A stretch of 64,000 nucleotides of DNA, from the NCBI RefSeq assembly GCF_029543125.1, contig NZ_JARQWW010000001.1, positions 620,001 to 684,000 of the forward strand. Reading direction: 5' to 3'. The notes under the pieces were generated by a model. It was not told the origin of the DNA and made no database searches. It worked only from the letters and a program-made list of their open reading frames with translations. A program made the position numbers and the translations under genes. Source of the DNA: Caulobacter segnis. Its GTDB lineage: Bacteria > Pseudomonadota > Alphaproteobacteria > Caulobacterales > Caulobacteraceae. This document shows, in pieces, positions 19,097 to 38,166 of this stretch. Position 1 is the first letter of the stretch. Each line of letters opens with the position of its first letter.

Positions 19097-19112
19097 GTCT
19101 TGGGAGACGTTG

Positions 19113-20967: not shown

Positions 20968-20970
20968 TCC

Positions 20971-22752: not shown

Positions 22753-24426
22753 CTATCGCAGCAGCTCCGGCTCCCATGTGTTGGTTCCGGACCCGCAGCG
22801 GCGCGAGCCATGCAGCCCGAGCACAATGCCACGCGCAGCGTCCGGAATTGAGGGACGGATCTCAACCTTTCCGATGCGAGCGTTTTCGCCGGGCACAACC
22901 TTTTCAAACTTCAAAATGACCCAGGCCTCCCGTCCCGCCCCCCCGGCAATCGCCGGTGTGCGCCCGATCGCAACCGTCGCAGGCCCGCCGAGGACGGATG
23001 CGTTTTCACCGTCAAAATGAGAGTAGCATCCAAGATTGGCGAACAGCGCATCTTGGCCGGTCGGCACCGCTCCCGCCCACTCCGCCTGATTTTCAAAACT
23101 CATCGCGGCGACATTGAACACAGTCGTGTTCGGATCATCCAAACTGGCCTTCGCAACGAACAAGCGGGACGCAGCCCTATTTCGCGTCGTAATCGTGGAA
23201 GACTTGAAGAAGGCGTTGATGTCCGTCGTCTCGTCGACTGATCCGAGAGGAATGTTGGTCAAGGTTGCGTTCATCTCCCGGGCCGTCGGTGCTCGCCCCG
23301 GCGGCGGAGGAGGCGGCGCGCCCGTCTCCAGAACCACACCCGCTGTGGTCAAACTGTTCTTGTTAGCCTGTATGCAGCTTACTTGGTCGTAGACGCCGCT
23401 CGCGAGCGGCGCCGAACGCTTGCGCCCCAAAGCCCACACCACGAGGGCGGCGTCGCCCTGGCTGAGGCCAGCCTTCTGCAATCCCGCGTACACCTCGGTG
23501 CAGGCCTTGTTCACGTCGACCGGAGCCGTCTTGACCAGCAAGTCGTCGTAGCTGGTGGCGGCCACGTGCTTGGCCAACTCATCCATCGTACGAGCCGGCG
23601 AAACCGGCTCATTATAGAAAGGATGACTGAGTATAGGCAGGTAGTTATTGCCGGTGACGATGTTTGATGCGGATGACGCTAGCGGATTGAAGTAGGTGGC
23701 CACACGATGAATGCGCGCCTTTACGAGTATGTCGTGAGAGCCTCCGAAGACATTCTTGGAAACCTTCCAATCGGGTTCTTTCTCTAAGACTCCCAAAGCC
23801 GGATTGATCGAAAGTTCAACGCCGACCTCCTGGCTGATGTTGTACCCGCCTCCTCCGAGCGTCCGCGAGATCAAAAGCCCCAGGCCGTCAGCAAACGGCG
23901 CCGTGACTTGGCTGATTTTCAACGCGGCTGCCGACGCCTCCGCCGTGGAATTCAGAAAGTCCTCGGTCGGCTTCGTCCGCTGATGAAAGAGCGGAGATAC
24001 GCGAAAGAACGTCGATGCGCTCGATTGCGTCGTGTAGAGGGGCGAGACGTACTGCGACCCACTTGCCTTCACGTTGCATTTTGTCTTGGAGATCAAAAGA
24101 ACCTTCGTTCTTTCGACGGTGATCGTGATGGGAGCCAGCTCAATTGTCTTGCCTCCCGGCAAGTCAATACGCGTGCCGACAAGCAGCTTTTGATCGGCGT
24201 TAAGAAGCTGCTCTATCGGCGTCCCGAAAGCTTTGCCGGTGGGACAGGCGGAAATCTCTTCTGTCGCGGCTCCGCCATAGGCCACCGATGCAATCAGTTG
24301 GACATAGCCGTCCATTGAGGCCTCTGCAGGCGGCGACTGGTTCGCCTGCCGTGCAAGTGCGCTGTCAGCGGCGCAGCAGATCAAGGCGCAAGCGCCAGCC
24401 GCCGCAAAAATCCGTTTACCGGCCAT
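22753..24426 (-). CDS. Secreted protein of unknown function
   Basis: A 557-residue protein from ATG 24424-24426 with a signal peptide (AAAGACALICCAADSALA). The mature chain is mixed alpha/beta with few cysteines and a short PPPPPP linker about residue 370 that divides it into two parts; the C-terminal part contains LGCYSHFDGENASVL and ends in a Cys-containing RRCGSGTNTWEPE. I do not recognise a family. It stands alone between vsr (convergent) and the NERD gene (divergent). A longer frame to 24492 exists but would disrupt the signal peptide. Confidence 0.7.
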   Translation of the reverse strand: MAGKRIFAAAGACALICCAADSALARQANQSPPAEASMDGYVQLIASVAYGGAATEEISACPTGKAFGTPIEQLLNADQKLLVGTRIDLPGGKTIELAPITITVERTKVLLISKTKCNVKASGSQYVSPLYTTQSSASTFFRVSPLFHQRTKPTEDFLNSTAEASAAALKISQVTAPFADGLGLLISRTLGGGGYNISQEVGVELSINPALGVLEKEPDWKVSKNVFGGSHDILVKARIHRVATYFNPLASSASNIVTGNNYLPILSHPFYNEPVSPARTMDELAKHVAATSYDDLLVKTAPVDVNKACTEVYAGLQKAGLSQGDAALVVWALGRKRSAPLASGVYDQVSCIQANKNSLTTAGVVLETGAPPPPPPGRAPTAREMNATLTNIPLGSVDETTDINAFFKSSTITTRNRAASRLFVAKASLDDPNTTVFNVAAMSFENQAEWAGAVPTGQDALFANLGCYSHFDGENASVLGGPATVAIGRTPAIAGGAGREAWVILKFEKVVPGENARIGKVEIRPSIPDAARGIVLGLHGSRRCGSGTNTWEPELLR

Positions 24427-24643
24427 TGAAATTTTCCCCGAACCCCGTTCGACGGTTAATCCCTCGTAAAGGTCAGTCAATAGAAAATACAATCTACGCG
24501 CGCTTTTTTACGGGTTGCCTTCTACGCGTCTTCTGAAATCGACTTCTCGAGCGGCGCCGCATCAACGCCGCGAGAGTCCGAGGCCCGTCATCGAGCCATT
24601 TTAACCCTTAAGCTTCACCAGTCATTCAGTTCGACTTCGGATT

Positions 24644-25717
24644 GTGGCCGGTATGGCCACAATGATCCCCTCCGCCCCCAAAGACTCCAAAAGCCCGGCA
24701 GAGGCGAAGGTGTGGAGGACGTTGGCGAAGCTTCCGGAAGACGTCTTCGTTTTCCACTCGCTCGATTGGATGGACGCCCCCCGTGGGCCGGCTCGCGAGG
24801 GGGAGATCGACTTCCTCATCATCGACCCCGCCTTCGGCGTGATGATCGTTGAGGTCAAAGGTGGTGAGATCGCTCACAGAAACGGGCAGTGGCTTCAGGG
24901 CCGAAAGGGCGAGCCGCCGACGATCGAAATCGATCCTTACCGGCAAGCCTCTGACAATGAGCACTATCTTCAGCGGTTGGTCAGCCGGAAGATTCCCGGG
25001 GGCTCGGGCATCATTTTCGGACATCTCGTCTGGTTTGCTGACGCCGACGTCTCCAACGTGGCGCTTCCGCCTTCCAACCCGCGAGAGATCACGCTGGACG
25101 GCAATGCTGTGGAACGCGCGCCCGAGGCGCTTCGTGAGGCATACGACTATTGGCGGGGCATGTGGCCGACCAAGCCGGCGCCCGGCCCCCGCCTCGCAGC
25201 CGACATCGTCGCGTATCTGAATCCGGACGTCGAACTGCCTTGTGTCGATCGCCCCGCTTCACCGCAAACGGATACGGTTGAGACACCGCCCACGCTGTCA
25301 GTCGTACCCACGCCCGCAGCAGCAGCATCGCCTCTACACCTGCGATTGATGCGACAGGCCGTAAGGACGCTGAGCGCAATCGTCCGCGACATTGTGCTTT
25401 TGCCGGTGCGCTTCGTCTTCGGCTTGGCGAGGCTGTTCGGCGCCCTGGCTTGGTGTCTGTGGGCTTGGTGCTGGGCCAAGTGCAAAGTCATCCTGGAACT
25501 CTGCATGGGAGTAGGCGTGCTGATTTTTGTCGGCGCGATGGTGTTGTTCTTCGCTTTCGACAAGCCTGGCGCCTTGGACTGGATCATCGGCGGCTTCGTC
25601 GGCAGCTTTGCGGCATTCGCCACCCACCATCTATTCGAACGGCTTGAGACCTATCTGACACCGATGCTCATCAAGTTGGGGCGTCAGCTCAACAGTGCGC
25701 TCCGGGTGCAATACTAG
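24644..25717 (+). CDS. NERD-domain protein with C-terminal membrane segments
   Basis: A 357-residue protein. Residues about 15-130 form a NERD (nuclease-related) domain: AEAKVWRTLAKLPED, GEIDFLIIDPAFGVMIVEVKGG, giving the E/D-x(n)-E-x-K core of PD-(D/E)XK nucleases. After a linker come hydrophobic stretches at about residues 245-275 and 280-325, so the domain would face the cytosol from the membrane. Starts possible at GTG 24644 or ATG 24653/24662. NERD proteins occur in defence islands, and this one adjoins the restriction-modification genes, but its role is not established. Confidence 0.8.
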   Translation: MAGMATMIPSAPKDSKSPAEAKVWRTLAKLPEDVFVFHSLDWMDAPRGPAREGEIDFLIIDPAFGVMIVEVKGGEIAHRNGQWLQGRKGEPPTIEIDPYRQASDNEHYLQRLVSRKIPGGSGIIFGHLVWFADADVSNVALPPSNPREITLDGNAVERAPEALREAYDYWRGMWPTKPAPGPRLAADIVAYLNPDVELPCVDRPASPQTDTVETPPTLSVVPTPAAAASPLHLRLMRQAVRTLSAIVRDIVLLPVRFVFGLARLFGALAWCLWAWCWAKCKVILELCMGVGVLIFVGAMVLFFAFDKPGALDWIIGGFVGSFAAFATHHLFERLETYLTPMLIKLGRQLNSALRVQY

Positions 25718-25797
25718 CGCGGCGCCCTGCTGCGCTAATGCCGCGCGAAAGCTCGTTGAAGGCTCTCTCGACCGGCCGCCCCATGGAGAGGCCTGCA

Positions 25798-25809
25798 CAC
25801 CTGCAGGTG
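25798..25809. promoter_or_regulatory. Palindrome CACCTGCAGGTG upstream of lasso precursor A1
   Basis: Perfect 12-bp palindrome ending 22 bases before the A1 start codon. It resembles the TGCACCT/AGGTGCA sites in front of the cluster's GntR gene (37444-37502). Possible operator for that regulator. Confidence 0.45.
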
Positions 25810-25830
25810 CTCAAGCCAATGGAGGCTGAC

Positions 25831-25941
25831 ATGACTATCGAACTCATCCGGCTCGGCCACGCTCGGAAACTGACCCAAGGCGCCGACACGCCCGGGCCGA
25901 TCGACGAAGACGGCCGTCCGGAATTCGTGCCGGTCGACTGA
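25831..25941 (+). CDS. Lasso peptide precursor A1
   Basis: A 36-residue precursor behind a GGAGG ribosome site 6 bases from ATG. Leader MTIELIRLGHARKLTQ (16 residues, Thr at position -2, as required by lasso proteases) and core GADTPGPIDEDGRPEFVPVD (20 residues). Gly1 would form an isopeptide bond to Asp9, giving a nine-residue ring; the tail carries Arg13-Pro14 and bulky Phe16, a plausible steric plug. Calculated monoisotopic neutral mass of the cyclised core is 2063.94. Immediately followed by a second precursor, then B and C genes. No similar peptide name can be assigned from sequence alone. Confidence 0.9.
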   Translation: MTIELIRLGHARKLTQGADTPGPIDEDGRPEFVPVD

Positions 25942-26083
25942 CGCCGGAGGCGACGTCGGCCTTGCGTCGGCGTCGCTGCCCGCCCGCCGCCTGAGAAGCC
26001 CTGCGGAAGCCAGTTGAAGACTTTCGAACCCGAGCGCCCGATCGATGCGCCGCAATCGGCGGCTTAACTTTGCGGAGGCTCTG

Positions 26084-26194
26084 ATGATCAATCCCGTTGT
26101 CATGATCGGCGACGCACGCCGGCTCACCCAAGGCGGCGCCGACCTAGGCCCCCTGGACGACGATCTGCGTCCCCAGTGGATGCCGAACGACTAA
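26084..26194 (+). CDS. Lasso peptide precursor A2
   Basis: Second 36-residue precursor, again behind GGAGG. Leader MINPVVMIGDARRLTQ (16 residues, Thr at -2) and core GGADLGPLDDDLRPQWMPND. Asp9 again fits a nine-residue ring with Gly1; Asp10 and Asp11 lie just outside. The core shares Gly1, Gly6-Pro7, Asp9, Asp11, Arg13-Pro14, Pro18 and Asp20 with A1; Trp16 replaces Phe16. Calculated monoisotopic neutral mass of the cyclised core is 2162.97. The 142-base gap after A1 holds only its ribosome site and a weak GACGCCG/CGGCGTC hairpin (25940-25974). Confidence 0.9.
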   Translation: MINPVVMIGDARRLTQGGADLGPLDDDLRPQWMPND

Positions 26195-26204
26195 GACCAA
26201 AACG

Positions 26205-26231
26205 ACGGCGCCGGCTTAAAGCCGGCGCCGT
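26205..26231 (+). promoter_or_regulatory. Hairpin between lasso precursors and processing genes
   Basis: Perfect 11-bp stem, ACGGCGCCGGC / GCCGGCGCCGT, with a TTAAA loop, 10 bases after the A2 stop and 13 bases before the B start. No T-run follows, so it may act as a partial terminator or as a 3' stabiliser of the precursor message, giving more precursor than enzyme. Similar A-B hairpins are known in proteobacterial lasso operons. Confidence 0.8.
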
Positions 26232-26244
26232 ACGGAGCTCTCCC

Positions 26245-26889
26245 ATGTCTCTCATGCTCGCCGCTGCGGCCGGTGTCCGGTTCGCCTTGGTCGACGATGA
26301 ACTGGTCTACCTCGATCTGCGCACGGATCAGTACGGCATGATCCAGGGCGTCGGCGACAAGGTCGTGCTGCACGCCTCCGACCTCATGACCGCGAGCGAC
26401 GAGCGCTTGGTCGAAGTTCTGTCGACGGCCGGACTTGTCTGCGACAAGGCTCCGACCAAGGTCTCTCCCCTCCGGATCGGCGCCGTCGATCTTCGTGATC
26501 AGACGGCTGACAGGTTGACCGCCGCCGACGCCCTGCGCTTCGCCGCGGTGCAGCTGGACGTGCTCACAAGTTTCCATCGGCGCCCGCTCGGCGCTCTGGT
26601 CGAACAGGTCGCGCGACGCAAACAGATCGGGATCATCGACAATGACGCCGCCTGCGCTGCCGCCCTGCGGTTCAGAGCGCTCCTGCCGCTGGCGCCGGTC
26701 GCGGGTCTTTGCCTGCAGCAATCCTTCATGCTCTTGGCCTGGCTGCATCGGCAGGGCTTAGGCGCCAGCTGGGTCTTCGGGGTGCGCACCTGGCCCTTCG
26801 AAGCCCACTGCTGGGTCCAGGCCGGACCGATCCTCCTTAACGACACCACCGAACGTGTCGCCACGTTCGAACCGATCTTGTGGGTCTGA
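26245..26889 (+). CDS. Lasso peptide maturation protease B (RRE + transglutaminase-like)
   Basis: A 214-residue protein that removes the leader. Residues 1-85 look like the PqqD-type leader-recognition domain (GVRFALVDDELVYLDLRTDQY); residues about 110-214 are the cysteine protease of the lasso B family, with catalytic Cys in VAGLCLQQSFMLLAWL, His in FEAHCWVQ and Asp in LLNDTTERV. Start at ATG 26245, after the hairpin; the frame is open upstream through A2's end. One base separates its stop from the C start. Confidence 0.92.
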   Translation: MSLMLAAAAGVRFALVDDELVYLDLRTDQYGMIQGVGDKVVLHASDLMTASDERLVEVLSTAGLVCDKAPTKVSPLRIGAVDLRDQTADRLTAADALRFAAVQLDVLTSFHRRPLGALVEQVARRKQIGIIDNDAACAAALRFRALLPLAPVAGLCLQQSFMLLAWLHRQGLGASWVFGVRTWPFEAHCWVQAGPILLNDTTERVATFEPILWV

Positions 26890-26890
26890 C

Positions 26891-28582
26891 ATGGGCGCAT
26901 TCATCTTTGTTCGGGCCGACGAGGGCGCAGGCGGCAAGCTGGATCTCGCCAAGGCCCTTCTCATCGAAGACGGATGGCGCGTCCGTCTTGAGGCCGACGG
27001 CGTCATGTTCGCCGTACAAGGTCCCGACGCGCCTTCGATCCGCAAATCGGCAGACGCAGACAGCTATCTCATCGGCGCGCTCTTTGATCGGCGCGGGCAG
27101 CCTGCCTTTGCGCCCTCGACAAACGGTCCACCACTCGAGCAGGCGGCCCGCCTCTGCAAAGACTACTGGGGACGGTACGCACTTCTGCTGTTTGACCGCA
27201 GCGGCGGAGTAGACGTGCTGACCGAACCGGGCGGCAGCATCAGTTGCGTCATGTGGCGCGTCGACGGCGCCTTTGTCGTCGCCTCTCGAATTCCGCAACG
27301 CCTCGGCCCGTTGACGCCGCAAGTGCGTCCGGACTGGCTAAGCGTGGCGCAGCGACTGGCGGACAGCTGGGCGGCCGATCCGCCGCCCCTGCTCACCGGC
27401 GTGACCCACAGCCGCGCAGGATCCTTGGTCAGCGCAGACGGGACCGAGACGCGGGTCTGGGACCCTTGCGCCTTCGCCGCCGACGCCGGCCGTGATCTTC
27501 AAGCCGACGGGCAAGCCGTCCGCGAGGCGCTGTCCATGGTGAGCGGCGCCTTTGCCCGCAGCAGCGCAAGGCCGGCCGTTCTCCTGTCCGGGGGCCTGGA
27601 TTCCTCCGTGGTCGCCGGCATGGCTGCTGAGCACTTTCAGCCGCAACTTCTGCACTTCACCTCCCCGTCCAAAGCCGCCGACGAGCTGCGTTTCGCGCAG
27701 GCTCAGGCGCAGCATCTGCAGTCCGACCTGGAGACGCTGGCGCGACCGGCCGCTCCCTTCTGCGCCCCCGGCGACGATGAGCTCGACACGTTCGAGCCGG
27801 ACCAGACGCTCTTTGCGCCCCAGTACCGCGACGCCCTATCGGTCTGGCGCCAGCGGCACGGCGTTGATGAGGTCTGGACCGGGCGCGGCGGCGACATGGT
27901 CTTCCTGCAGTCCGGCGTCTCGATCGCGCAGGATCTGATCCGACGGGACGGACCGGCGGCGCTGTTCGGCAAGGACCTCTACGCCTTCGCCATGGCCCGA
28001 CGCACGACGCTATGGACCCAGTGGCGGGCCGCCATGAGCGGCGAAGGGGTCGATAATTCGCCGCCGCATTATGACTGGGTCGCCTCACCCCGTCGGGCGC
28101 AAAAGACCTCAAGCGTGTTCACCGCCGCCAAGTCGGTGCATCTGCGCATGGTCGCCACAAGCCCGCGGTCCTTTGACCGATCCACCGCCCGCGATTTTGT
28201 AAGCTACCGACATCCGCTATTGGCCCAGCCGGTTCTGGAGGCCTGTCTGTCGGCGTCCCCGGTCAACCTTTGCAAAGGCGGGCGCGACCGGGCCTTGGCG
28301 CGCACGGCCTTCGCCGAGCAGTTGGCGCCGGCCGTACGGCGCCGCCGCTCCAAGGCCTCCTTAAGCCCCCATCAAGGCCGGCGTTTCCTGGCCGGCCTTG
28401 ATTTCATCCGCCCTTTTCTCCTCGACGGACTTTTGGCCGCCAAGGGCCTGATCGACCGCCCCCGCCTGGAGCATGCTCTGGCTCCCGCGACCCTGGCGTG
28501 GAGATGTGAGCAAGGCGCCCTGATCGACGCCTTGGCGCTGGAGGCCTGGGCTCGCTACTGGTCGGCGCGCGTTTCAAGATGA
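26891..28582 (+). CDS. Lasso cyclase C (asparagine-synthetase-like)
   Basis: A 563-residue ATP-dependent macrolactam synthetase that adenylates the Asp9 side chain and closes the ring onto Gly1. The PP-loop SGGLDSSVVAGMA is near residue 235, with downstream WTGRGGDMVF. The N-terminal domain resembles class II glutaminase but starts MGAF instead of MCG, so it lacks the glutamine-hydrolysing cysteine, as expected for lasso cyclases. Start ATG at 26891. Its end overlaps the convergent isopeptidase gene by 28 bases. Confidence 0.93.
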   Translation: MGAFIFVRADEGAGGKLDLAKALLIEDGWRVRLEADGVMFAVQGPDAPSIRKSADADSYLIGALFDRRGQPAFAPSTNGPPLEQAARLCKDYWGRYALLLFDRSGGVDVLTEPGGSISCVMWRVDGAFVVASRIPQRLGPLTPQVRPDWLSVAQRLADSWAADPPPLLTGVTHSRAGSLVSADGTETRVWDPCAFAADAGRDLQADGQAVREALSMVSGAFARSSARPAVLLSGGLDSSVVAGMAAEHFQPQLLHFTSPSKAADELRFAQAQAQHLQSDLETLARPAAPFCAPGDDELDTFEPDQTLFAPQYRDALSVWRQRHGVDEVWTGRGGDMVFLQSGVSIAQDLIRRDGPAALFGKDLYAFAMARRTTLWTQWRAAMSGEGVDNSPPHYDWVASPRRAQKTSSVFTAAKSVHLRMVATSPRSFDRSTARDFVSYRHPLLAQPVLEACLSASPVNLCKGGRDRALARTAFAEQLAPAVRRRRSKASLSPHQGRRFLAGLDFIRPFLLDGLLAAKGLIDRPRLEHALAPATLAWRCEQGALIDALALEAWARYWSARVSR

Positions 28583-30861
28583 AGGCTGCGTTCAAGAAAG
28601 GCGAAGGCCTCCTTGAACATCACCTCCAGATTTGCGGGGCTTTCGATCACGTGCCCCTCGCCCCAGAACCGCGCCAGCCGCACATCCTTTCCTTGCCGAC
28701 GCAGCGCCGCATAGAGGGCGATGGCTTGGTCCTCCGCCACATGGTCCAGGTCGCTGTGCAGCAGAAGCACCGGCGCCGAGACCTTGTCGGCGAAATAGAG
28801 CGGGCTGTTTCGGACATAGCGATCCTTCTGCGCCCAGGGTGGTCCTTTAAGATCGCCCTGCCCGCCCTCGGCCCAGTAGGCGGCGAAAGCGACCCCGTAG
28901 TTCAGATCATCCGATTGCTTGAGGGCAGGATGCTGCTGGCTCCAGACCGCCGTCAGATCGTAGAGCCCGTGTGCGGCGACAACCGCCTTGAACCTGTCGG
29001 TCTGTGTGGCGATGGCCAGGGCTCCGAAGCCGCCGAAGCTGTTGCCCCACAAGGCAAGCCGATCAGGATCGGCGTAGCCCTCTTTGATGACCCGGTCGAC
29101 CAAAGGAAGCACCTGGTCGGCCAGCCGCAGGCCGGGCTCTCCTTCGCGAGCAGGCATGGCGGGGGTGAGCACCGCATAGCCCTGCCCGGTCATGACCGCC
29201 ACATCGATGGACCAGCGCATCTGGTCGGGACGATAGACGGCGACCCGGTCTGCTCCCGGATAGGGCATGACGATCAGAGGATCACCGCCGGGTCGGGGAC
29301 GGGCCGGCCGATAGAGCAGGCTGACGAGTTCATCACCGCCTGCAGTGCGATGCCGAAGCTCAACCGCGCTCGGAACCTCGCGATCCGCCAGCCAAGGATT
29401 ATAGACCGACAGCGTCCGGGCCGCCTTGCCCGGTCCGCTGAGGACAAGCGCGGCGACGCCGTGACGGTCGTGCATCAGGGTGACGACCTGCCCGCCGGCT
29501 GCCGCCACGAGACGACCCTCGGGCTGAGGTGCGTAATCAAAGGTCCCTTGCGCCGAGACTGTGCCCCCCGGCGGCGTCGCACCGAACCGGCGCCGCGGGG
29601 CGCCGAGCTGAAGCAGCCGGGCCCGGGCGGCAAGCCGATGCGCGGTCTCAGACACCTCGACGGGACCTGAGGCGTCAAGCCGCCAAGGCGCATCTGCGCC
29701 GCCCGGATAGAGGGCAGGACCGGCGCCCGGCGCGCCTCGTCGCCAGGCCGGCGCCCCGCCTTGGCCGGAGCCGAAGACGTAAGGCGTCTCCCCCCGCCAT
29801 TGCGCGGCGACGGCGATGTTCTGATCCGTGGTGATCACGCGCTGCGCGTCGATGTCGTCGATGACGCGCAGACGCTCCTGAGAACGAGACCAGATGCGCA
29901 CCTGTCCCCATGCCCCGCCCGCGGGCCGCGCATGGAACATCAGCTGATCCCCGCTCGGCGACCAACTGATCAACTTGTTGCTGATGTCGCAGTCAGCACA
30001 GGGGGTCTGGGCCGCGCCGCTCTTAAGGTCGATCAGCATCAGATTGCGGCGGATGCCGGTCTCGCCGACCATGTCTCGGCTGTTCTTCAAGGATGCCGCG
30101 CCGGCGATGTAGGCGGCGGCCAGCACCGCGCCGTCGGGAGAGAGCTCCAGATCATAGAACCGCCCCGATGCGAGCGTCCTGACCGCTCCGTCACGTGCGT
30201 TCACCGACACGATGCGGCCCGGCGCAAAGCCGCACTCGCAACCCTCGTCACGGCTGTCGACCACCGTCATGCTCGCAAGACCCAAGGCCGCCCGTCGCTG
30301 CAGGTCGGAGGCCTTGGTCGCAGCGATGTTGTGCCGGTCGAGATCTCGATCAAAGTCGCTGCGTTGCTCGGCGACCACGAGGAGTTCGTCGTCGGAGCGC
30401 CACTGCATGTTGCGCGGCGACAGGCCGACGACCGCTCTGACCGCGGCCCACCGGACCGTGCGGTCCGCCAGGTTGACGACACCCACCTGCATGGCGCCGT
30501 TGTTAAATCGATAGACCGCAAGACGCGCGCCCGACGGAGACACAGGCCCCAGGCTGTAGCCATAGGGTCTGGACTGCGCGAAGAGAGGCTTGATCGCGCC
30601 GCCGCTCTTTAGGTCGGCGACGGATATGCGACCCGTGGTTCGCGCCTGCCCCCGTCCGTAATCAAAGCGCTGCGCCTGATCGCGTCCGAGACGATGCTCG
30701 ATGAAGAGATATCGGCCCGAAGGCTCAAAGCCCGCCTGGACGAACTCTTCCAGAGCCACGAGATCGCGAGGCGTCAGAGGGGCGGCGACAACCGGCTGGT
30801 GAATGAAGGCGCAGAAGAGGGCGCCGGCGGCCGCAGCCGCCTTTCGGAAAGCGGATCTCAT
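28555..30861 (-). CDS. Lasso peptide isopeptidase (S9 prolyl-oligopeptidase family)
   Basis: A 768-residue exported serine hydrolase (signal peptide ending QPVVAA). An N-terminal beta-propeller is followed by an alpha/beta-hydrolase domain with nucleophile GNSFGGFGA, Asp in HSDLDHVAEDQ and His in WGEGHVIE. In Caulobacterales lasso clusters, enzymes of this type (AtxE) open the isopeptide bond of the threaded peptide. Its location, convergent to the cyclase and next to the TonB receptor, supports that role; substrate is inferred. Confidence 0.88.
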   Translation of the reverse strand: MRSAFRKAAAAAGALFCAFIHQPVVAAPLTPRDLVALEEFVQAGFEPSGRYLFIEHRLGRDQAQRFDYGRGQARTTGRISVADLKSGGAIKPLFAQSRPYGYSLGPVSPSGARLAVYRFNNGAMQVGVVNLADRTVRWAAVRAVVGLSPRNMQWRSDDELLVVAEQRSDFDRDLDRHNIAATKASDLQRRAALGLASMTVVDSRDEGCECGFAPGRIVSVNARDGAVRTLASGRFYDLELSPDGAVLAAAYIAGAASLKNSRDMVGETGIRRNLMLIDLKSGAAQTPCADCDISNKLISWSPSGDQLMFHARPAGGAWGQVRIWSRSQERLRVIDDIDAQRVITTDQNIAVAAQWRGETPYVFGSGQGGAPAWRRGAPGAGPALYPGGADAPWRLDASGPVEVSETAHRLAARARLLQLGAPRRRFGATPPGGTVSAQGTFDYAPQPEGRLVAAAGGQVVTLMHDRHGVAALVLSGPGKAARTLSVYNPWLADREVPSAVELRHRTAGGDELVSLLYRPARPRPGGDPLIVMPYPGADRVAVYRPDQMRWSIDVAVMTGQGYAVLTPAMPAREGEPGLRLADQVLPLVDRVIKEGYADPDRLALWGNSFGGFGALAIATQTDRFKAVVAAHGLYDLTAVWSQQHPALKQSDDLNYGVAFAAYWAEGGQGDLKGPPWAQKDRYVRNSPLYFADKVSAPVLLLHSDLDHVAEDQAIALYAALRRQGKDVRLARFWGEGHVIESPANLEVMFKEAFAFLERSLHLETRADQ

Positions 30862-30867
30862 GGACGA

Positions 30868-33825
30868 TCACCAGCGCTTGGTGACTTGGACGGCCAGCAG
30901 CCGCCCGACCGGATCGGCGTTGGCCGCATCGTATCCGTAGCCTGCAGGAGCTTGATAGAAGGGCGGATCGACGTCGAAGAGGTTCTGCGCCGAGACGCTG
31001 ATGTCCAGCCCCTGCGCAAAGCCGGCCTCGGGCCGCCAGCCGAGATAGAGATCGGCTGTGGTCCAGGAATCCACGCTGCGTCCGGTCAGGCGGTCTCGAT
31101 AGCCGTCCACGTAATTGATCGTGGCGCGCGCCGTCCAGGAACGATAGCCCCAGGTCAGCGAGCCCCGCGCCCGCAGATCCAGCGGAAAGCCGCCGGTGTC
31201 GAGCAAGTCGACCGCCGGCGCATCGGCCGTGACGCCACGCCGATAGCGCGTCAGATAGACCCCGTCGGCCTCGGCGGTGAAGCGATGCTCGCCCTGTGAG
31301 AAGTCGTAACGCGCCCGCACGTCGACCCCACGGGTCTGCAGAACCCCGGCGTTCACATAGCGGCCGTCGACGATGGCGCGAAAGCTCGTCGCATCGCTCT
31401 GGCTTGAGTTGCTGAAGTTCGGCTGGGCCAAGAAGGCGCGGACGCGCTCCAGGTCGGCGGTGTTGGTCGACGGACTGATCCGGGTCACCAAGGTGGCGTA
31501 GATCGGATCATTGAGCACGCCGGAGATGTTTTCGGCAGCCGGCTGGCCGATGCGGCCGCGATAGCGAATGTCGAACCATCCCAGGCTGAGCGACAGGCCG
31601 TCCAGCCACTGCGGCTCATAGTCGAACCCGGCGGTGAACGAGCGCGAGGATTCAGGCTTCAGGTCGTCATTGCCGCCGTACATCACGATGACCGGAACAA
31701 GCTGTGCGCCTTCGTTGATGAGGCTCGCCGCATTGGTCCGAGCCTGACGGACCTCCGCCAAGGTCGGGGCCCGGAAGGAGGTTCCGTAGCTGGCGCGGAC
31801 CCGCAGGCCCGAGGCCGGCGACCAGACCGCGCCGAGCTTGGGGTCGGCCGTGGTTCCGGCGTCGTCATAGTCCTCAATCCGACCGGCCAGGGAGAGCTCC
31901 AGGCGCTCGATCCCGCGCACGGCGTTGTCGTCGCCGACGAGCGGAATTCGAAGCTCGCCGAAGATCGCGCCCACGCGACGATCAGCCGAAGGGCCGTAAG
32001 ATGCGGTCGGCGTGCGCAGGCTTCCGGAGGTGTAGAACTCACCGCTGCGGTCGTAGGTCTCGGTGCGAAGATGCGCGCCGAACGCCAGGCGCACGGGCCC
32101 TGCGGGAAGATCAAAGACCTCGCCGTCGACCAACAGGTTGGCCGAGGTCACCGCCGTCTCAAAGGTGATGAGCGAGCGGCCGGAGGCGACGAAGTCGAGA
32201 ACTGCGGCGCTGTTGGCCTTGCCCGCGCCGAACGGATTGAAGAACCCGTCGCGAGCGGCGGCATAGGCGGAGTCCGGATCATCGGGAATGTTGCCCAAGG
32301 CCTCGGACAAAGCCCTGGAGTGAATGGTGTTCTTGATCCGATGACGGCCGGTCTCCTCGCCGTAGGCCACATAGGCCTGACCGCGCCAGGTGCGGCCGAG
32401 ATCGGCTGAGACTGAAGCCGAAGCGGCCAGGGCTTCGGCCACGCCTTCGAAGCGCTGAGGTCCGATGTCATTGAGGAAGGAGTAGCTGATCGAATGGCTC
32501 GACGCGCCGTTGGGGGAAACGAAGAAGGGATTGGCCCGCGAGACGTTGATGGTCGTCGAATTGCCACCGGCGCGTCCTTCATAGTCGCGCCGCGAATAGC
32601 GCATGTCCGCTTCGAACTTGAGGCCGCCCCAAGATTGCGCCGCGGCGGCGAAGAGGCCGTGCCGGGTCTGGCCGGCGATGATGTCCTGCCCCGCAAAGCC
32701 GCTGAACAGGTTGGTCTCGCCGGCTGCGAAGTCCGCAGGCGATCGCGCATAGCCGCGTTCTGAAGGGCGGATGGCGTAGAGGACCCGGGCTCCGGAGACG
32801 ATGTTGCCCGGCGAGCTGAAATGGCGCCGCAGATCGGCGCCCCCGAAGGGGCGCAGATCCGCCGAAGCGGCGTAGTCCCGCTCGGCGGCCCGCAGGGCGT
32901 CCTTATGGCTGAACTCGTAGGAGACCACCGCATGCCCGCCGCTCCACGACGCCCCGGCCGTATGGGCGGCTGAGCCTTGGCCGAGGCCGCCCGGCGCGCC
33001 GCCGAACCGCAGGCGCGTCTCCTGTCTTTCGAAGGTCTTGCGAAGGATGATGTTGACCACCCCGCCGACGGCGTCGGAGCCGTATAGCGCCGAGGCCCCG
33101 TCCAGCAGCACGTCGACCCGCTCGATGGCCGCGGTCGGAATGGCGGAGACGTCGGCGAAGTCGCCCTTGGAGCCGGTGCCGGATATCCGCCGACCGTTGA
33201 CCAGAACCAGGGTGGCGTTGGCGCCCAGGCCCCTCAGGTTGAGGCCCGTGGACATGGTGGTGTTGGAGCCACTGTTGTCGGCGGCGGTCAGACTGCTGTC
33301 AGGGGTCGCCGTACCGCCGAAGTTCTGCGGCAGGGCCTGAAGGAAGTCTGCGACGGTGGCCTGCCCCGCCTTGTCGAGATCGTCCCGCCGGAAGATCAAA
33401 ACCGGCGAAGCGCCTTGATCGGCGCCCCGCAGCAGAGAGCCGGTGACCACCACCTCATCGAGCCTGACGGGTTCCTGCTGCTCAAGCGCCGCCGACGAAG
33501 ACGGCGTCTTGATCGGCGCCACCACGAAGACCCCCGGTCTCGGCTCGACTGCCTCCAGGCCGGTGCCGCCCAGCAGGCGCTGCAACGCTTCGGTCGCGCT
33601 CATCGCGCCTCGAACGCCCCCCGTCCTGCGGCCGGCGGCGACGCCGGAATCGACGACCACCTGCACGTCGAAGGTCTTGCCGAACGCCTCCAGCGCCGGG
33701 GCGAGCGGTCCGGGGGCGATGTTCACATCCGCTCGCGCGGCCTGAGCTTGGCCCGTCTGAGCCTGGGCCGCCGAGCAAGCGGCGACCGCCGCCGTCACCC
33801 CGAGAAACGCTGCTGCATAGTTCAT
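30868..33825 (-). CDS. TonB-dependent receptor with N-terminal signalling (STN) domain
   Basis: A 985-residue outer-membrane transducer. Signal peptide; STN domain about residues 35-105 (APALEAFGKTFDVQVVVDSG, ATEALQRLLGG); plug starting LDEVVVTGSLLRG; 22-strand barrel ending in VTKRW with the C-terminal aromatic. The STN domain talks to FecR across the periplasm. In this cluster it probably takes up the lasso peptide (or a complex of it) and signals its presence. Ribosome site GGAGGGG lies before ATG. Six bases precede the isopeptidase start. Confidence 0.93.
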   Translation of the reverse strand: MNYAAAFLGVTAAVAACSAAQAQTGQAQAARADVNIAPGPLAPALEAFGKTFDVQVVVDSGVAAGRRTGGVRGAMSATEALQRLLGGTGLEAVEPRPGVFVVAPIKTPSSSAALEQQEPVRLDEVVVTGSLLRGADQGASPVLIFRRDDLDKAGQATVADFLQALPQNFGGTATPDSSLTAADNSGSNTTMSTGLNLRGLGANATLVLVNGRRISGTGSKGDFADVSAIPTAAIERVDVLLDGASALYGSDAVGGVVNIILRKTFERQETRLRFGGAPGGLGQGSAAHTAGASWSGGHAVVSYEFSHKDALRAAERDYAASADLRPFGGADLRRHFSSPGNIVSGARVLYAIRPSERGYARSPADFAAGETNLFSGFAGQDIIAGQTRHGLFAAAAQSWGGLKFEADMRYSRRDYEGRAGGNSTTINVSRANPFFVSPNGASSHSISYSFLNDIGPQRFEGVAEALAASASVSADLGRTWRGQAYVAYGEETGRHRIKNTIHSRALSEALGNIPDDPDSAYAAARDGFFNPFGAGKANSAAVLDFVASGRSLITFETAVTSANLLVDGEVFDLPAGPVRLAFGAHLRTETYDRSGEFYTSGSLRTPTASYGPSADRRVGAIFGELRIPLVGDDNAVRGIERLELSLAGRIEDYDDAGTTADPKLGAVWSPASGLRVRASYGTSFRAPTLAEVRQARTNAASLINEGAQLVPVIVMYGGNDDLKPESSRSFTAGFDYEPQWLDGLSLSLGWFDIRYRGRIGQPAAENISGVLNDPIYATLVTRISPSTNTADLERVRAFLAQPNFSNSSQSDATSFRAIVDGRYVNAGVLQTRGVDVRARYDFSQGEHRFTAEADGVYLTRYRRGVTADAPAVDLLDTGGFPLDLRARGSLTWGYRSWTARATINYVDGYRDRLTGRSVDSWTTADLYLGWRPEAGFAQGLDISVSAQNLFDVDPPFYQAPAGYGYDAANADPVGRLLAVQVTKRW

Positions 33826-33930
33826 TTCAGTCCCCTCCTTTGTGCGACGGAACCGTCGCTTGAGAGGGGAGAGTTCGAATATGCGTCGACACCCTAACCG
33901 GCTTGTCGCAAAATTTTCAAAATCGGTTGG

Positions 33931-34902
33931 TCAGCCCCGCGGCCGCAGCCGGACGGTGCGTCCGTCAGCCTCAAGCTCCAAGCGGTAGAGGGTGGCGATG
34001 GCTGATGCGAATGCGGCGGTGTCCCCCGTCTTGAAGACGCCGCTCACCTTCACGTCTTCCAGCCCTTCATCGGCCAGCTCGACCTTCTGTTGCGAATAGC
34101 GGTTCACTTCGCCCACCGCGGCCTGCAGCGGCGTCTCCTTGAAGATCAGCTTGCCATCGCGCCAGCTGGTCTGAACCTGCATGTCGACCTTGCGCCGCAC
34201 CACCGCGCCGTCGGTCGCGGCCAGCTGATCGCCCGGCGCCAGGACCGGCGATTGCGCGCGGTCGCCGTGAAGGTTCTCAACCTTGACGGCGCCCTCCATC
34301 AGACTGACCTGAACTTGATCGCCGTCCTTGCGCACCTCAAAGCGCGTGCCCAGGGCCTCTACCCGCTCATTACCGGCCTCGACCACAAACGGCCGGGTTT
34401 TATCATGCGCCACGTCGAAGAAGGCCCGGCCCCGACTGAGGGTCACGCGTCGCCGGTCGCCTGCGAAGTCCACGACGATTTTGGTCGCCGTATCGAGCGT
34501 GACTTTGCTGCCGTCGGACAGGACGGCGATCCGGCTTTCACCGACCTTAGTGACCAGACGCGGCTGCCACGGCCGCCAAACACCCACCGAGAGGACGATC
34601 GCCGCGGCCAAGAGGCCGGCGCCGACCGCAGCGCGGCGGCGGCGGCGCGCCATGGCCGAAGGAGAGGTGGACGCCAGCACATCGGCGGCAAGACGCTGCA
34701 TGTCCGGGTCGTCGACCAAAGCGTCGCCGCTGCGCCAAAGACCGTCGATCTCGTCGTAGGCGCGACGATTGGCGGGATCTTGCCGCCACTTTCGAAAGGC
34801 CGCCACCCGCTCGACCGAGATGCTGCGGTTCTTCAGCTCGGCGAACCAAAGCGCCGCTTCGCTGCGCGATCTGGACGTATTGGCCTCAGGCACGTCTTGC
34901 AC
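33931..34902 (-). CDS. FecR-family anti-sigma/signal relay
   Basis: A 323-residue bitopic protein, GTG start. Cytoplasmic N-terminal domain with the FecR helix pattern (EAALWFAELKNRS, FRKWRQDPANRRAYDE), one membrane helix at about 92-110, periplasmic FecR domain (VGESRIAVLSDGSKVTLDT, GTRFEV) and STN-like C-terminus (FKETPLQAAVGEVNRYS). It should relay TonB-receptor occupancy to a FecI sigma factor, but no sigma gene is adjacent. Gap to the ABC gene is 90 bases. Confidence 0.92.
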   Translation of the reverse strand: MQDVPEANTSRSRSEAALWFAELKNRSISVERVAAFRKWRQDPANRRAYDEIDGLWRSGDALVDDPDMQRLAADVLASTSPSAMARRRRRAAVGAGLLAAAIVLSVGVWRPWQPRLVTKVGESRIAVLSDGSKVTLDTATKIVVDFAGDRRRVTLSRGRAFFDVAHDKTRPFVVEAGNERVEALGTRFEVRKDGDQVQVSLMEGAVKVENLHGDRAQSPVLAPGDQLAATDGAVVRRKVDMQVQTSWRDGKLIFKETPLQAAVGEVNRYSQQKVELADEGLEDVKVSGVFKTGDTAAFASAIATLYRLELEADGRTVRLRPRG

Positions 34903-34992
34903 CCTTCGTCGTCATCGACTGCACATTGCACTGATGCGCCGGCGCCCGCCGGACATCACCCTGCAACGCCGCCGTATCGACGGGCTGATATA

Positions 34993-36708
34993 TCATCGCC
35001 CCGACCCTTCGTCGCCAGAGGAAGTGGCGCCGCTCACGGCCCAGAAGCGCCTCGCGGCGCCGTGCCCGGCCAGCATTCGGCGGGCCGGGCCTTGGTCCGA
35101 AATCCTCCCCGCCCGCAGCAGGATGATCCGGTCGGCGGCCGAGGCCAGAGCTAATGAATGGGTCGCCATGATGATTGTCTCATGGCGCCGAAAACGCCTC
35201 ATCCAGGCGATCACCGCCGCTTCGGCGGCAGGGTTCAGGCCTGCGGTCGGCTCGTCGAGAACCCAAAAGCTGTGTTTGCGGCAGACCAGGCGAGCCAACA
35301 TGACGAGACGGCCCTGCCCTCCCGAAAGGTCGCCGCCCGACTTGCCCGTCGTGACCCCGAACTTCGCCGAAAGTTCCACCAGGGCCTCCATGCGACGATC
35401 ACAAAAAGACGGCGATGAGCCGAGCAGCATGTTGCGCCGCACGCCGATCCCGAACATGGCGTTGCGCTGAGGCAGGTACCCGCACCTCGCAATAAGATCG
35501 CGCGCATCGGTCGGACGTCCGTCCGTCAGAACGGCTCCCCCTGCAAGCCGAACCGATCCCGCCAGCACTCGGCACAAGGTCGATTTGCCCGAACCGCTCT
35601 CGCCGATCACGGCCACCCGCTCTCCCGGTGCGATCGCCAGATCAAGCCCTTCAAGACGGACGTTTCCGGCCTCATCTCTGACGACGCCGCCGATGATCGC
35701 CACAGCCGCCGGCTTGCGCGCCACGGGCGCGCATTGGCTTACAGGCCTTTGGGGAAAACCTTCGATATGCTGCAGATCGCTGAAGGCGTTTCGGACGTCG
35801 CGAAAGATGAAGCCGAATGCGCCCAGCGGCGCCAGGAGCTGCAGCACCGAGGCCTCGACGAGCACCATATCCCCGAGGGTCATTTTCCCGGCATGCACCT
35901 GGCGCACACAGTAGACGAGCGCAGCGGCGTGCGCGCACGCAGAAAGCAGCACCCACACTGCATTGAGCGATGAGGATCGGGTCTGAGCCCGGATCGCCCG
36001 GCCGGCGCGAACGGAGGAAAGCCGACCGATCCTCTGAATGGCCCAGCGTCTTGCTGAGACGCCTCGCACGGCGTCGGACTTATCGACGGCGTCGAAGAGA
36101 AACTGAGTAAATGCGGCGTCAGCGAGATTGAGGCGGCGGCGGGCGGCGACCGCCCTTTGCGTCACCACCACCGCAACGAAGCCGTAGAACCCCGCCACAA
36201 CCAGCATCAGCGCGCCCACCGCCGGATCAAGGACCCGCCAGATGATCACGCTGAGCATGACGCTCTCAATCATCAGCGGCGCCAAAGAGACGATCATGCT
36301 TTGGAAGATGAGCCCGACGGCCGCGCCGGCTCGCTCAATCGCTTTGATGACCCGGGGCGGAGCATCACCGACCGCCGCGTCGCCGTCTATCACGCGTGAA
36401 GCCGCCTCGCAGACCAAACACCGTCGAACAGCTTCAGCAAACGGTACGAGCGCCACCGATCGCACCATTCCCGCCAGACCCGCGCCGAGGCGTAAGGCCG
36501 GGTAGGCCGCACCCGCAGCCAGGAGCGGCGCAAGATCCGCCATCCTTCCCCCCGGACCTAAGGCGTCGACGAGCCGTTTGAGCTGAAGCGGCGCCGCTGA
36601 GGCCAGAACTGACGACGCCACAATCGCCGATGCGCCCAGCATGATCCGGGCTCGGTCTTTGATCGTCGCCGCACGCCATGCCGCAGCCGCAGCGCCGACG
36701 AGCATCAC
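34993..36708 (-). CDS. ABC exporter (permease-ATPase half-transporter), probable lasso peptide exporter
   Basis: A 571-residue type I ABC exporter half. About six membrane helices in residues 20-290, then an intact nucleotide-binding domain: Walker A GESGSGKST, signature LSGGQGRLV, Walker B FWVLDEPTAGLNP, and the H-loop ATHSLAL. In the lasso locus and overlapping the GntR gene by four bases, it is a good candidate for the D-type exporter/immunity pump; substrate is inferred. Most isopeptidase-type lasso clusters lack such a gene. Confidence 0.85.
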   Translation of the reverse strand: MMLVGAAAAAWRAATIKDRARIMLGASAIVASSVLASAAPLQLKRLVDALGPGGRMADLAPLLAAGAAYPALRLGAGLAGMVRSVALVPFAEAVRRCLVCEAASRVIDGDAAVGDAPPRVIKAIERAGAAVGLIFQSMIVSLAPLMIESVMLSVIIWRVLDPAVGALMLVVAGFYGFVAVVVTQRAVAARRRLNLADAAFTQFLFDAVDKSDAVRGVSARRWAIQRIGRLSSVRAGRAIRAQTRSSSLNAVWVLLSACAHAAALVYCVRQVHAGKMTLGDMVLVEASVLQLLAPLGAFGFIFRDVRNAFSDLQHIEGFPQRPVSQCAPVARKPAAVAIIGGVVRDEAGNVRLEGLDLAIAPGERVAVIGESGSGKSTLCRVLAGSVRLAGGAVLTDGRPTDARDLIARCGYLPQRNAMFGIGVRRNMLLGSSPSFCDRRMEALVELSAKFGVTTGKSGGDLSGGQGRLVMLARLVCRKHSFWVLDEPTAGLNPAAEAAVIAWMRRFRRHETIIMATHSLALASAADRIILLRAGRISDQGPARRMLAGHGAARRFWAVSGATSSGDEGSGR

Positions 36709-37340
36709 GGTGCGGCGCCGTCATTGTTGCGGCTCTCGCTCTTGATGGGTCCGGCCAAGGCGGCGCGTCGCTCGTGGAGATCGGCGATCGCGCGTTCAAG
36801 CTTGCGGGCGTCACCGGCCTGACAAAGGGCGTCGATCATCGCCAAATCGACCGCCGCGGTCTCCACGCATCGGTCTTCGGCCGTCGCTAAAAAGGCCAAC
36901 CGATCGGACAGGCGGTCGTAGAGATAGGTAAGGGCGTCGCTTCCGGCGCGACGGACAAGTTGCCGTAACTGAAACTCAAGCCGGTCCACGTTCGTAAGGT
37001 CGATGCGGGACTCTGACGGTAGGGAAAGAGCGGCGGGCCGCCCGTCATTAGGCGGCCAACGCGCAATCGCCAAACCCACGAGACGACCGCGAGTGCGGTA
37101 CAGATCGCTGATGTCTTCGGTGTCCGCCTGCGGCACGAAATAGCCGTCACCGGCTCGACCGTCGAGCAGGCCCTGGCCGGCCAGTTGCGCCAAGGCCTGG
37201 CGCACCGGCGTCGTGCTCAGGCGCAGCTCCTCCGCAAGTTCGGCGGCAGAGACACGTCCCCCCGACGGCAATGCTCCGCTGCGTACGCGACGGCGCACGG
37301 TCAGCAGCACACGCTCGAACTTTTCCTTGGCTTTTCCCAT
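36705..37340 (-). CDS. GntR-family transcriptional regulator
   Basis: A 211-residue regulator: N-terminal winged helix (RRRVRSGALPSGGRVSAAELAEELRLSTTPVRQALAQLAGQ is the GntR helix-turn-helix area, residues 13-55) and an all-helical FCD-like C-terminal domain. Start at ATG 37338-37340 with GGAG before it; the open frame continues to 37610 but runs through the repeated upstream sites. First gene of the exporter/receptor series and probably autoregulated. Confidence 0.87.
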   Translation of the reverse strand: MGKAKEKFERVLLTVRRRVRSGALPSGGRVSAAELAEELRLSTTPVRQALAQLAGQGLLDGRAGDGYFVPQADTEDISDLYRTRGRLVGLAIARWPPNDGRPAALSLPSESRIDLTNVDRLEFQLRQLVRRAGSDALTYLYDRLSDRLAFLATAEDRCVETAAVDLAMIDALCQAGDARKLERAIADLHERRAALAGPIKSESRNNDGAAP

Positions 37341-37443
37341 GGACGGCTCCTGCATCCATCGCGCGCCATACGGGGCCCGCATGCAAGTTCGAGCGCCTGG
37401 TTCCGGGGCATTCGCTGCCATGCGGAGAGCGTTCAGTGCGGAC

Positions 37444-37502
37444 TGCACCTCGCAGGTGCAAATTCGCACGACGAAGGTGCGGATGCGGATCTCTGAGGTG
37501 CA
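37444..37502. promoter_or_regulatory. Array of AGGTGCA sites upstream of the GntR gene
   Basis: Three AGGTGC[AG] copies on the plus strand at 37454, 37475 and 37496, spaced exactly 21 bases (two helical turns), and an inverted TGCACCT at 37444-37450 making TGCACCT-CGC-AGGTGCA. They lie about 105-160 bases before the GntR start. The rest of the 37341-37653 gap holds no gene that I can support; the promoters of the divergent GntR and XRE genes must be here. Confidence 0.6.
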
Positions 37503-37653: not shown

Positions 37654-38166
37654 ATGGACGCAGAGGCGCTTATTGAATCCGCTCACAACAGAAGGTCTAA
37701 TCTTGCTCAAATCATTCGAACACTGAGGCTCGCCGCTAACCTCAGCGTGACGGAGACCGCCCGCCGGATGGGCGTGACGCGCCGCGTGTATCAAACGTTC
37801 GAAAAGGGCGACTCAGCCGTCGATATCGGCCTAGTTTACCGGTTCGGCGAGGCCGTCGGTGCCGACCCTGCCGGGATCATCGTTTCGTTACTTATCGGCG
37901 ATGCACGATTTGCTTACAGGGTCGCCGAAAACAAGGTGATGTTGATGGCCATCTTGGCCATCGAGGAGTGGAACCGAAAATTCGGTGACGACTTGGAGTT
38001 GGCAAATCCGAACGAGTTTTACTCCATCCTCTCCGTCGCCTTAGGCAAGATGATCGAGAACGCTCGGTCTCGAGAGACCGTCGGCGAGATGGTTCTCCAG
38101 CAGCGTTTTCCAAGATTGTCTTTTTCGCTCTTCAATCGGTTTCGCAAAGAAAGCCGCGAGCGTTAG
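37654..38166 (+). CDS. XRE-family helix-turn-helix regulator
   Basis: A 170-residue protein with an N-terminal helix-turn-helix (LAQIIRTLRLAANLSVTETARRMGVTRRVYQTFEKG is its core, residues 17-52) and a helical C-terminal half of unknown type that may bind a ligand or dimerise. It is divergent from the GntR gene across a 313-base regulatory gap. No effect on the lasso locus can be shown from sequence. The following 38167-38461 contains no convincing gene. Confidence 0.8.
   Translation: MDAEALIESAHNRRSNLAQIIRTLRLAANLSVTETARRMGVTRRVYQTFEKGDSAVDIGLVYRFGEAVGADPAGIIVSLLIGDARFAYRVAENKVMLMAILAIEEWNRKFGDDLELANPNEFYSILSVALGKMIENARSRETVGEMVLQQRFPRLSFSLFNRFRKESRER

What the first reader, a model, noticed from the sequence alone, without database searches (positions are those of the whole stretch)
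25798..37502. Complete lasso-peptide locus with two precursors
A1, A2, hairpin, B and C on one strand and GntR, ABC exporter, FecR, TonB receptor, isopeptidase on the other form one convergent locus. The genes are recognised directly from motifs; the locus combination and both cores look new to me, though novelty needs a database check.
Basis: partly seen in the sequence, partly recalled or inferred. Interest (0 to 1): 0.88.

Follow-up and report, generated by a model that had tools for sequence, protein, structure and literature searches.

The report
Rewired lasso-peptide locus with own exporter
This is a complete-looking set of genes, in a Caulobacter-like bacterium, for making, exporting, sensing and breaking down two knotted "lasso" peptides; the kind is known, but here two regulators have changed places and a peptide-exporter gene has been added, which makes it an unusual variant.

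Summary
It is an isopeptidase-type lasso cluster of the caulosegnin kind (relative L048 encodes caulosegnins I-III exactly). The stated interval missed the main oddity. The sigma factor that belongs with FecR lies outside it, at 19110-19628: in 75 genomes of the genus, all 12 other hits at 1e-25 lie near lasso cyclase genes, and its sister in the tree is the sigma factor of locus L052. In L052 and the window FecI and GntR have exchanged places: FecI stands upstream of the precursor genes, GntR on the FecR side. Of 120 related loci only L052 shows this. The window adds an ABC exporter (0 of 120) and a 6-kb restriction-modification-like stretch between FecI and A1. A published review calls the gene order of isopeptidase clusters almost constant and names one with an ABC transporter, rubrinodin; so exporter plus isopeptidase has a precedent, while for the swap I found none. 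Both cores are unmatched in what I searched. A real, intact-looking new variant of a known kind; chemistry and regulation untested.

The parts
19110..19628 (+). FecI-type ECF sigma factor, displaced partner of the cluster's FecR
   Evidence: Sigma70_r2 and r4_2; all 12 non-self hits at 1e-25 in 75 genus genomes lie 2.7-8.3 kb from a lasso C gene; clade of two with the FecI of L052, SH-aLRT 95
19629..25790 (.). Restriction-modification-like stretch between FecI and A1 (C5-methylase 19756-20967 +, ORF 20971-22113 -, Vsr 22219-22671 +, ORF 22753-24492 -, NERD protein 24644-25717 +)
   Evidence: Pfam and PADLOC; ORF 20971-22113 matched in no other of 75 genus genomes at 1e-20; in L052 FecI is directly followed by A. 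That it is an insertion is inferred
25798..25809 (.). Palindrome CACCTGCAGGTG upstream of A1, candidate operator
   Evidence: Only two CACCT-N1-4-AGGTG sites in the window, the other upstream of GntR; 1 in 2.29 Mb of relatives
25831..25941 (+). Precursor A1, 36 aa, leader 16, core GADTPGPIDEDGRPEFVPVD, ring predicted Gly1-Asp9
26084..26194 (+). Precursor A2, 36 aa, leader 16, core GGADLGPLDDDLRPQWMPND, ring predicted Gly1-Asp9
26205..26231 (+). Hairpin between A2 and B
   Evidence: hairpins with arms of 11 or more near the start of B in 27 of 120 relatives against 13 of 1200 control stretches
26245..26889 (+). B: leader peptidase (214 aa); its N-terminal part is where an RRE is expected
   Evidence: NF033537, Transglut_core3; Cys156, His188, Asp200 invariant in 14 sequences
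26891..28582 (+). C: lasso cyclase, asparagine-synthetase-like (563 aa)
   Evidence: PF00733; SGGLDS motif among 49 columns invariant in 15 sequences
28555..30861 (-). S9-family peptidase, presumed lasso isopeptidase; N-terminus reads as a Sec signal (by eye)
   Evidence: Peptidase_S9; Ser608, Asp706, His737 invariant in 15; profile of 15 finds AtxE2 5txc at 2.5e-19
30868..33825 (-). TonB-dependent receptor/transducer with STN domain
   Evidence: PF00593, PF07715, PF07660
33931..34902 (-). FecR anti-sigma factor
   Evidence: PF04773, PF16220
34993..36708 (-). ABC exporter half-transporter (membrane part and ATPase in one chain)
   Evidence: PF00005 above cut-off, ABC_membrane just below it; Walker A, LSGGQ, Walker B, Q and H motifs present; best-scoring relatives 27-30% identical
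36705..37340 (-). GntR regulator, stop codon overlapping the start of the ABC gene (TGATG)
   Evidence: PF00392; sequence; start chosen by eye at the ATG at 37340
37444..37460 (.). Palindrome TGCACCT-N3-AGGTGCA upstream of GntR, candidate operator
37654..38166 (+). HTH (XRE-like) gene divergent from GntR
   Evidence: PF13560, PF01381; a homolog somewhere in 82 of 120 stretches, beside GntR in many of the first 40

Best explanation
This is an isopeptidase-type lasso-peptide cluster of the caulosegnin kind in a rearranged form. B cuts the 16-residue leaders from A1 and A2 and C closes Gly1 onto Asp9 around the tail, giving two lasso peptides (inferred from family). The ABC protein, whose start overlaps the GntR stop, exports them (inferred). 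The STN-bearing TonB receptor takes them, or a complex they form, back up, and the S9 isopeptidase opens the ring in the periplasm (inferred). Receptor occupancy passes through FecR to the FecI at 19110-19628 (inferred from the Fec paradigm). In canonical relatives FecI is next to receptor and isopeptidase genes and GntR next to the precursor. Here and in L052 they are exchanged (shown), so FecI is placed with biosynthesis and GntR with export, sensing and breakdown. Each half would then control the other, which could make production respond to peptide that has been exported and come back (inferred). A restriction-modification-like island later separated FecI from A1 (inferred).
For: Gene families and intact catalytic residues. 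Of 120 related stretches 120 have B, 112 the TonB receptor, 111 the S9 peptidase, 106 FecR, 104 all four. L048 carries precursors identical to caulosegnins I-III (sequences in Table 1 of PMC12427821, passages). FecI directly upstream of FecR in 97 of 106 FecR-bearing stretches. FecI on the biosynthetic side in 1 of 120 and GntR on the receptor side in 1 of 120, both L052. Window FecI hits only lasso-linked sigma factors in the genus, 12 of 12 at 1e-25, and forms a clade with that of L052. TonB, FecR and GntR of the window are also nearest to L052 by path. ABC gene in line with GntR and FecR on one strand, start overlapping the GntR stop; 0 of 120 relatives have an ABC hit.
Against: No chemistry or expression data. 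B and C trees do not place the window beside L052 but on a long branch with L158, L196 and L197, so the genes may have different histories. Support for TonB, FecR and GntR nearness to L052 is weak, and by plain identity the closest TonB is L058 and the closest GntR L146. By BLAST bits the FecI of L071 and L118 scores slightly above that of L052 (124 against 119), though L052 is more identical. The S9 peptidase scores 53 bits on the curated isopeptidase model (cut-off 400) and slightly more on a dipeptidyl-peptidase model. The best solved-structure matches of the ABC protein are Atm1-type exporters; McjD is not among the 60 of 404 rows shown; its structure model was poor (pLDDT 50). FecI now stands 6.2 kb from A1, so its link to biosynthesis may be broken.
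Confidence: 0.75

Rival explanations
1. An ordinary isopeptidase lasso cluster in which the ABC gene is a passenger with another substrate (for example an Atm1-like exporter), and the regulator exchange has no functional meaning.
For: ABC best hits are generic exporters at 27-30% with Atm1-type at the top of solved structures; 0 of 120 relatives have an ABC gene in the stretch.
Against: The gene sits between GntR and FecR, overlaps the GntR stop codon and keeps all ATPase motifs; rubrinodin's cluster has the same combination (PMC9266682, passages).
Confidence: 0.2
2. A decaying cluster: split by a restriction-modification-like insert, its sigma factor cut off, and drifting, so that no peptide is made.
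For: Window branches are among the longest (C rank 1 of 121, B 4 of 121, S9 peptidase 4 of 108); FecI is 6.2 kb from A1; no close relative of C in the genomes searched.
Against: The reading frames are open and catalytic residues are kept; ribosome sites, hairpin and paired palindromes are present.
Confidence: 0.1
3. The FecI at 19110-19628 is an unrelated sigma factor of the neighbouring mobile region, and this cluster simply lost its FecI.
For: It stands among XRE and restriction-modification genes and has lower GC (0.574).
Against: 12 of 12 non-self hits at 1e-25 in 75 genus genomes lie next to lasso C genes although each genome gave 2 to 46 first-look candidates; sister to the L052 FecI.
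Confidence: 0.07

Closest known systems
Caulosegnin I-III cluster of Caulobacter segnis (found here as L048; identity of the cores read in PMC12427821 Table 1)
   Same: Genes A, B, C against S9 peptidase, TonB receptor, FecR; several precursors; short leaders ending in LTQ or LTR
   Different: GntR stands on the precursor side and no ABC hit is found; the window's cores had 8 (A1) and 9 (A2) identical residues at most in the eight best-scoring alignments to 78 precursors
Rubrinodin cluster (Xiu et al. 2022; known to me only through passages of PMC9266682)
   Same: ABC transporter plus isopeptidase plus TonB receptor plus FecI/FecR
   Different: Gene order and sequences not available to me; no statement seen that FecI and GntR are exchanged
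Astexin/benenodin clusters with AtxE2-type isopeptidase
   Same: Same logic: lasso peptide, TonB receptor, sigma/anti-sigma, isopeptidase (PMC9266682 passages; plasmid records)
   Different: The window's S9 peptidase is a distant relative: AtxE2 is found by the 15-sequence profile but not by the window protein alone at 0.001
Microcin J25 cluster with exporter McjD (from PMC11006600 and PMC13352647 passages)
   Same: Dedicated ABC exporter beside A, B, C
   Different: Its four-gene cluster as described there has no isopeptidase or receptor operon; the ABC proteins were not shown to be close relatives

Membership tests
Lasso-peptide biosynthetic cluster | Precursor with Thr at -2, Gly1 and Asp/Glu at 7-9 | tested here: met
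   Both precursors, Asp9; the motif itself is recalled knowledge
Lasso-peptide biosynthetic cluster | B peptidase with Cys-His-Asp | tested here: met
   NF033537 above cut-off; Cys156, His188, Asp200 invariant in 14
Lasso-peptide biosynthetic cluster | RRE at the N-terminus of B | tested here: inconclusive
   Sequence aligns with relatives but no RRE model matched
Lasso-peptide biosynthetic cluster | AsnB-like cyclase with ATP motif | tested here: met
   PF00733; SGGLDS invariant in 15. The curated lasso cyclase model NF033535 gives 33 bits against a cut-off of 525, the macrolactam cyclase model NF033561 93 against 300
Lasso-peptide biosynthetic cluster | Threaded product | not testable with these tools
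   Needs mass spectrometry and NMR
Isopeptidase-type cluster | S9 peptidase convergent with C, TonB receptor next to it | tested here: met
Isopeptidase-type cluster | Peptidase in the curated AtxE2 family (NF033523) | tested here: inconclusive
   All 15 aligned members match the model; the window scores 53 bits against a cut-off of 400, in the catalytic domain
Isopeptidase-type cluster | GntR before the precursor, sigma/anti-sigma pair behind the receptor (published order, PMC9266682) | tested here: not met
   FecI and GntR exchanged
Isopeptidase-type cluster | No ABC transporter gene (published rule, one exception) | tested here: not met
   ABC gene at 34993-36708
Lasso exporter (McjD type) | Fused membrane and ATPase half-transporter | tested here: inconclusive
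   ABC_tran above cut-off, ABC_membrane just below it; motifs present
Lasso exporter (McjD type) | Closer to lasso exporters than to others | not tested
   No set of lasso exporters was gathered; model too poor for a fold search

The most novel reading that the evidence does not exclude
The swap-type cluster is a cell-to-cell signalling circuit. The lasso peptide is exported by its own ABC protein, sensed by the STN-TonB receptor and FecR, and the FecI it releases drives the operon that makes it, while GntR, made with receptor and isopeptidase, shuts it off. Exchange of the two regulators would have turned a scavenging loop into an autoinducing one.
Probability: 0.15. Interest if true: 0.75.

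Novelty: new variant of a known kind. Interest (0 to 1): 0.5.

Why it matters
What isopeptidase-type lasso peptides do is unknown: PMC9266682 (passages) calls their function enigmatic and their gene order almost constant. A natural rearrangement that keeps every part but exchanges the two regulators and adds an exporter is an experiment done by evolution. It lets one ask which regulator controls which half, and whether export is needed. With L052 as a swap-type relative without an ABC hit, the two changes can be studied apart.

Tried and rejected
Chance for the precursors: rejected, since the same leader-core pattern stands at the same place in relatives.

Close relatives of the window's C or ABC: none found. 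C best 34-37% in the family and 34-35% in the genus; no confirmed hit in a genome-contig scan (six short peptide patterns only); 3 of 289 genomes drawn from the class at 1e-15, one of them the window's own. ABC: best-scoring relatives 27-30% in family, class and genome contigs. The Janthinobacterium record L101 carries a generic exporter and no hit to the other window genes.

Empty site for the mobile region: tried through the extensin-like gene at 38462-39376; I judged it uninformative from the hit list and fetched no neighbourhoods. The longest exact repeat between 1-8000 and 37301-51000 is 15 bp. No exact repeat of 9 bp or more joins the two ends of the restriction-modification-like stretch (19501-19760 against 25691-25840).

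Operator shared by both promoters of L052: no shared 5-bp palindrome arm found. Structure of the ABC protein: model too poor to search (pLDDT 50). The rubrinodin paper is not among the five papers; three other key papers (astexin, AtxE2 structure, benenodin) are not held.

A mistake corrected: the window's C was translated from 26892, out of frame, which gave a false branch of 2.85; one search repeats it from 26891. The other genes used right frames.
Full report
What was checked. The window lies in a 4.08-Mb genome (G000:C3:620001-684000). I call the organism Caulobacter-like because its genus group holds G182, whose cluster encodes the caulosegnins, and because the window has an RsaA domain; no call names it. 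Start codons were settled from the sequence: A1 25831-25941, A2 26084-26194, B 26245-26889, C 26891-28582. Each precursor has 36 residues, a 16-residue leader ending in LTQ, and a 20-residue core with Gly1 and Asp9. The calculated lasso masses are 2063.944 and 2162.969 Da.

Is it intact? Residues taken as catalytic are kept: Cys156-His188-Asp200 in B (14 sequences), SGGLDS in C (15 sequences), Ser608-Asp706-His737 in the peptidase (15 sequences), and the ATPase motifs in the ABC protein. The hairpin before B is strong and has counterparts: arms of 11 bp or more near the start of B in 27 of 120 relatives against 13 of 1200 control stretches from the same loci. C and peptidase genes overlap at their ends by 28 bp, TonB and peptidase are 6 bp apart, ABC and FecR 90 bp, and the GntR stop overlaps the ABC start (TGATG).

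Comparison set. I took 120 stretches around C homologs: 118 from the same family (of the matches printed, not all of those printed) and 2 from another family. Some are cut by contig ends. All 120 have B, 112 the TonB receptor, 111 the S9 peptidase, 106 FecR, 104 all four. None has an ABC hit at 1e-5, with the window's ABC and an Atm1-type exporter as queries. So exporter plus isopeptidase is seen in the window and in 0 of 120 relatives. In the literature, PMC9266682 (passages) says that all isopeptidase clusters lack an ABC gene except rubrinodin. Of 26 plasmid records with a C match I opened five; one has no annotation, and the other four list no ABC transporter gene (these gene tables are incomplete).

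The exchanged regulators. In canonical loci FecI stands directly upstream of FecR (97 of 106 FecR-bearing stretches; 3 of the 9 exceptions end within 100 bases of FecR). GntR stands on the side of A-B-C (110 of 111 stretches with a GntR hit: 89 only on the strand of A-B-C, 13 only on the other strand, 8 both). In the window GntR leads the FecR side and FecI is missing there. A FecI-like gene stands at 19110-19628, on the strand of A-B-C and upstream of it. In 75 genomes of the genus, with 2 to 46 first-look candidates each, it has 12 non-self hits at 1e-25, all 12 within 2.7-8.3 kb of a lasso C gene. Its best match in the genus is in L052 (genome G158). There the order is FecI-A-B-C on one strand and GntR-FecR-TonB-peptidase on the other, with FecI directly before A. 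Of 120 stretches L052 is the only one with FecI on the biosynthetic side and the only one with GntR on the receptor side; 20 show no FecI and 9 no GntR hit, so they do not count either way. L071 and L118 have FecI turned round but still on the receptor side; by BLAST bits their FecI scores slightly above that of L052 (124 against 119), at lower identity. In the tree of 75 of 101 FecI sequences the window and L052 form a clade of two with SH-aLRT 95. TonB, FecR and GntR of the window are also nearest to L052 by path, without strong support. B and C are not: they sit on long branches with L158, L196 and L197. The divergent GntR/HTH pair seems to have moved as one: the window has the HTH gene at 37654-38166, and I read a similar HTH gene upstream of GntR in L052 by eye; the tblastn did not list one in L052.

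What separates FecI from A1. In the window 6.2 kb lie between them: a C5 methylase, an ORF of unknown kind, Vsr, a second unknown ORF and a NERD protein. The first unknown ORF has no match at 1e-20 in the other 74 genus genomes. I read this as a restriction-modification-like island that entered a swap-type cluster. No repeat marks its ends, so insertion rests on the comparison with L052.

Regulatory sites. The window holds exactly two CACCT-N1-4-AGGTG palindromes, one ending 21 bp before the A1 start and one upstream of GntR; the same pattern occurs once in 2.29 Mb of relatives. The spacers differ (2 and 3 bp) and the motif was chosen after seeing both regions, so this is a lead. With one mismatch allowed, three sites of each form are found in the window where shuffles give 1.2-1.3. 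In 31 of 120 relatives a different palindrome stands upstream of GntR, CGCAA-N5-TTGCG: 37 sites, all with a spacer of 5 although 3 to 7 were allowed. Another 31 matches of the N3-7 pattern lie elsewhere in the 2.29 Mb. It is absent from the window.

Mechanism. Shown: gene content, order, kept residues, exchange of FecI and GntR, added ABC gene. Established for the families (from PMC9266682 passages or general knowledge): B and C make the lasso, isopeptidases linearise threaded lasso peptides, FecR and FecI relay receptor signals. Inferred: the ABC protein exports these peptides; the receptor takes them back; the peptidase acts in the periplasm (its N-terminus reads as a Sec signal, by eye, no predictor run); the exchange couples sigma-factor supply to biosynthesis and GntR supply to export, sensing and breakdown.

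Known or new. The class is known and the closest characterised relative is the caulosegnin cluster: L048 encodes the three caulosegnin cores exactly (against the table in PMC12427821). The eight best-scoring of 78 precursors found in 57 of the 120 loci share at most 8 (A1) and 9 (A2) residues with the window's cores, and neither core appears in the paper library (one search by sequence). For the exchange of FecI and GntR I found nothing in print: the searches were (open-access library, listings only), with passages read in PMC9266682, PMC7549694, PMC11006600, PMC12427821, PMC13352647 and PMC10926693. Key subscription papers are not held. The review seen states the other order as almost constant. 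Hence a new variant of a known kind, with a published precedent for one of its two oddities.

Noticed in passing
6544-18437: A trb-type conjugation module lies upstream of the locus: relaxase, TraG-like coupling protein, TrbI, CagX, VirB8, TrbL and T4SS families by Pfam up to 15387, a TrbE-like protein and a small membrane protein beyond it by eye. On the conjugative plasmid Lpl of Novosphingobium sp. PP1Y a lasso cluster stands directly next to trb genes, so transfer together is plausible.
   Followed up: partly
31 of 120 related loci, for example L035, L037, L053, L069, upstream of GntR: Palindrome CGCAA-N5-TTGCG, in several loci twice about 22 bp apart, a candidate operator of the lasso GntR or HTH regulator.
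   Followed up: partly
L071, L118: FecI stands near FecR but on the opposite strand, a further rearrangement.
   Followed up: no
43478-45175: The ORF beside OEP and HlyD genes matches only the membrane part of an ABC transporter (below the Pfam cut-off), with no ATPase domain found; possible frameshift or truncation.
   Followed up: no
51262-54588: Large protein of bacterial Ig-like repeats with an RsaA (S-layer) N-terminal domain match at its C-terminal end, residues 936-1102 of 1108.
   Followed up: no
L045: The isopeptidase frame is only 427 aa and the receptor side looks rearranged.
   Followed up: no
20971-22113 and 22753-24492: Two proteins without any Pfam match; the first, next to a C5 methylase and convergent with it, may be its restriction enzyme.
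   Followed up: partly
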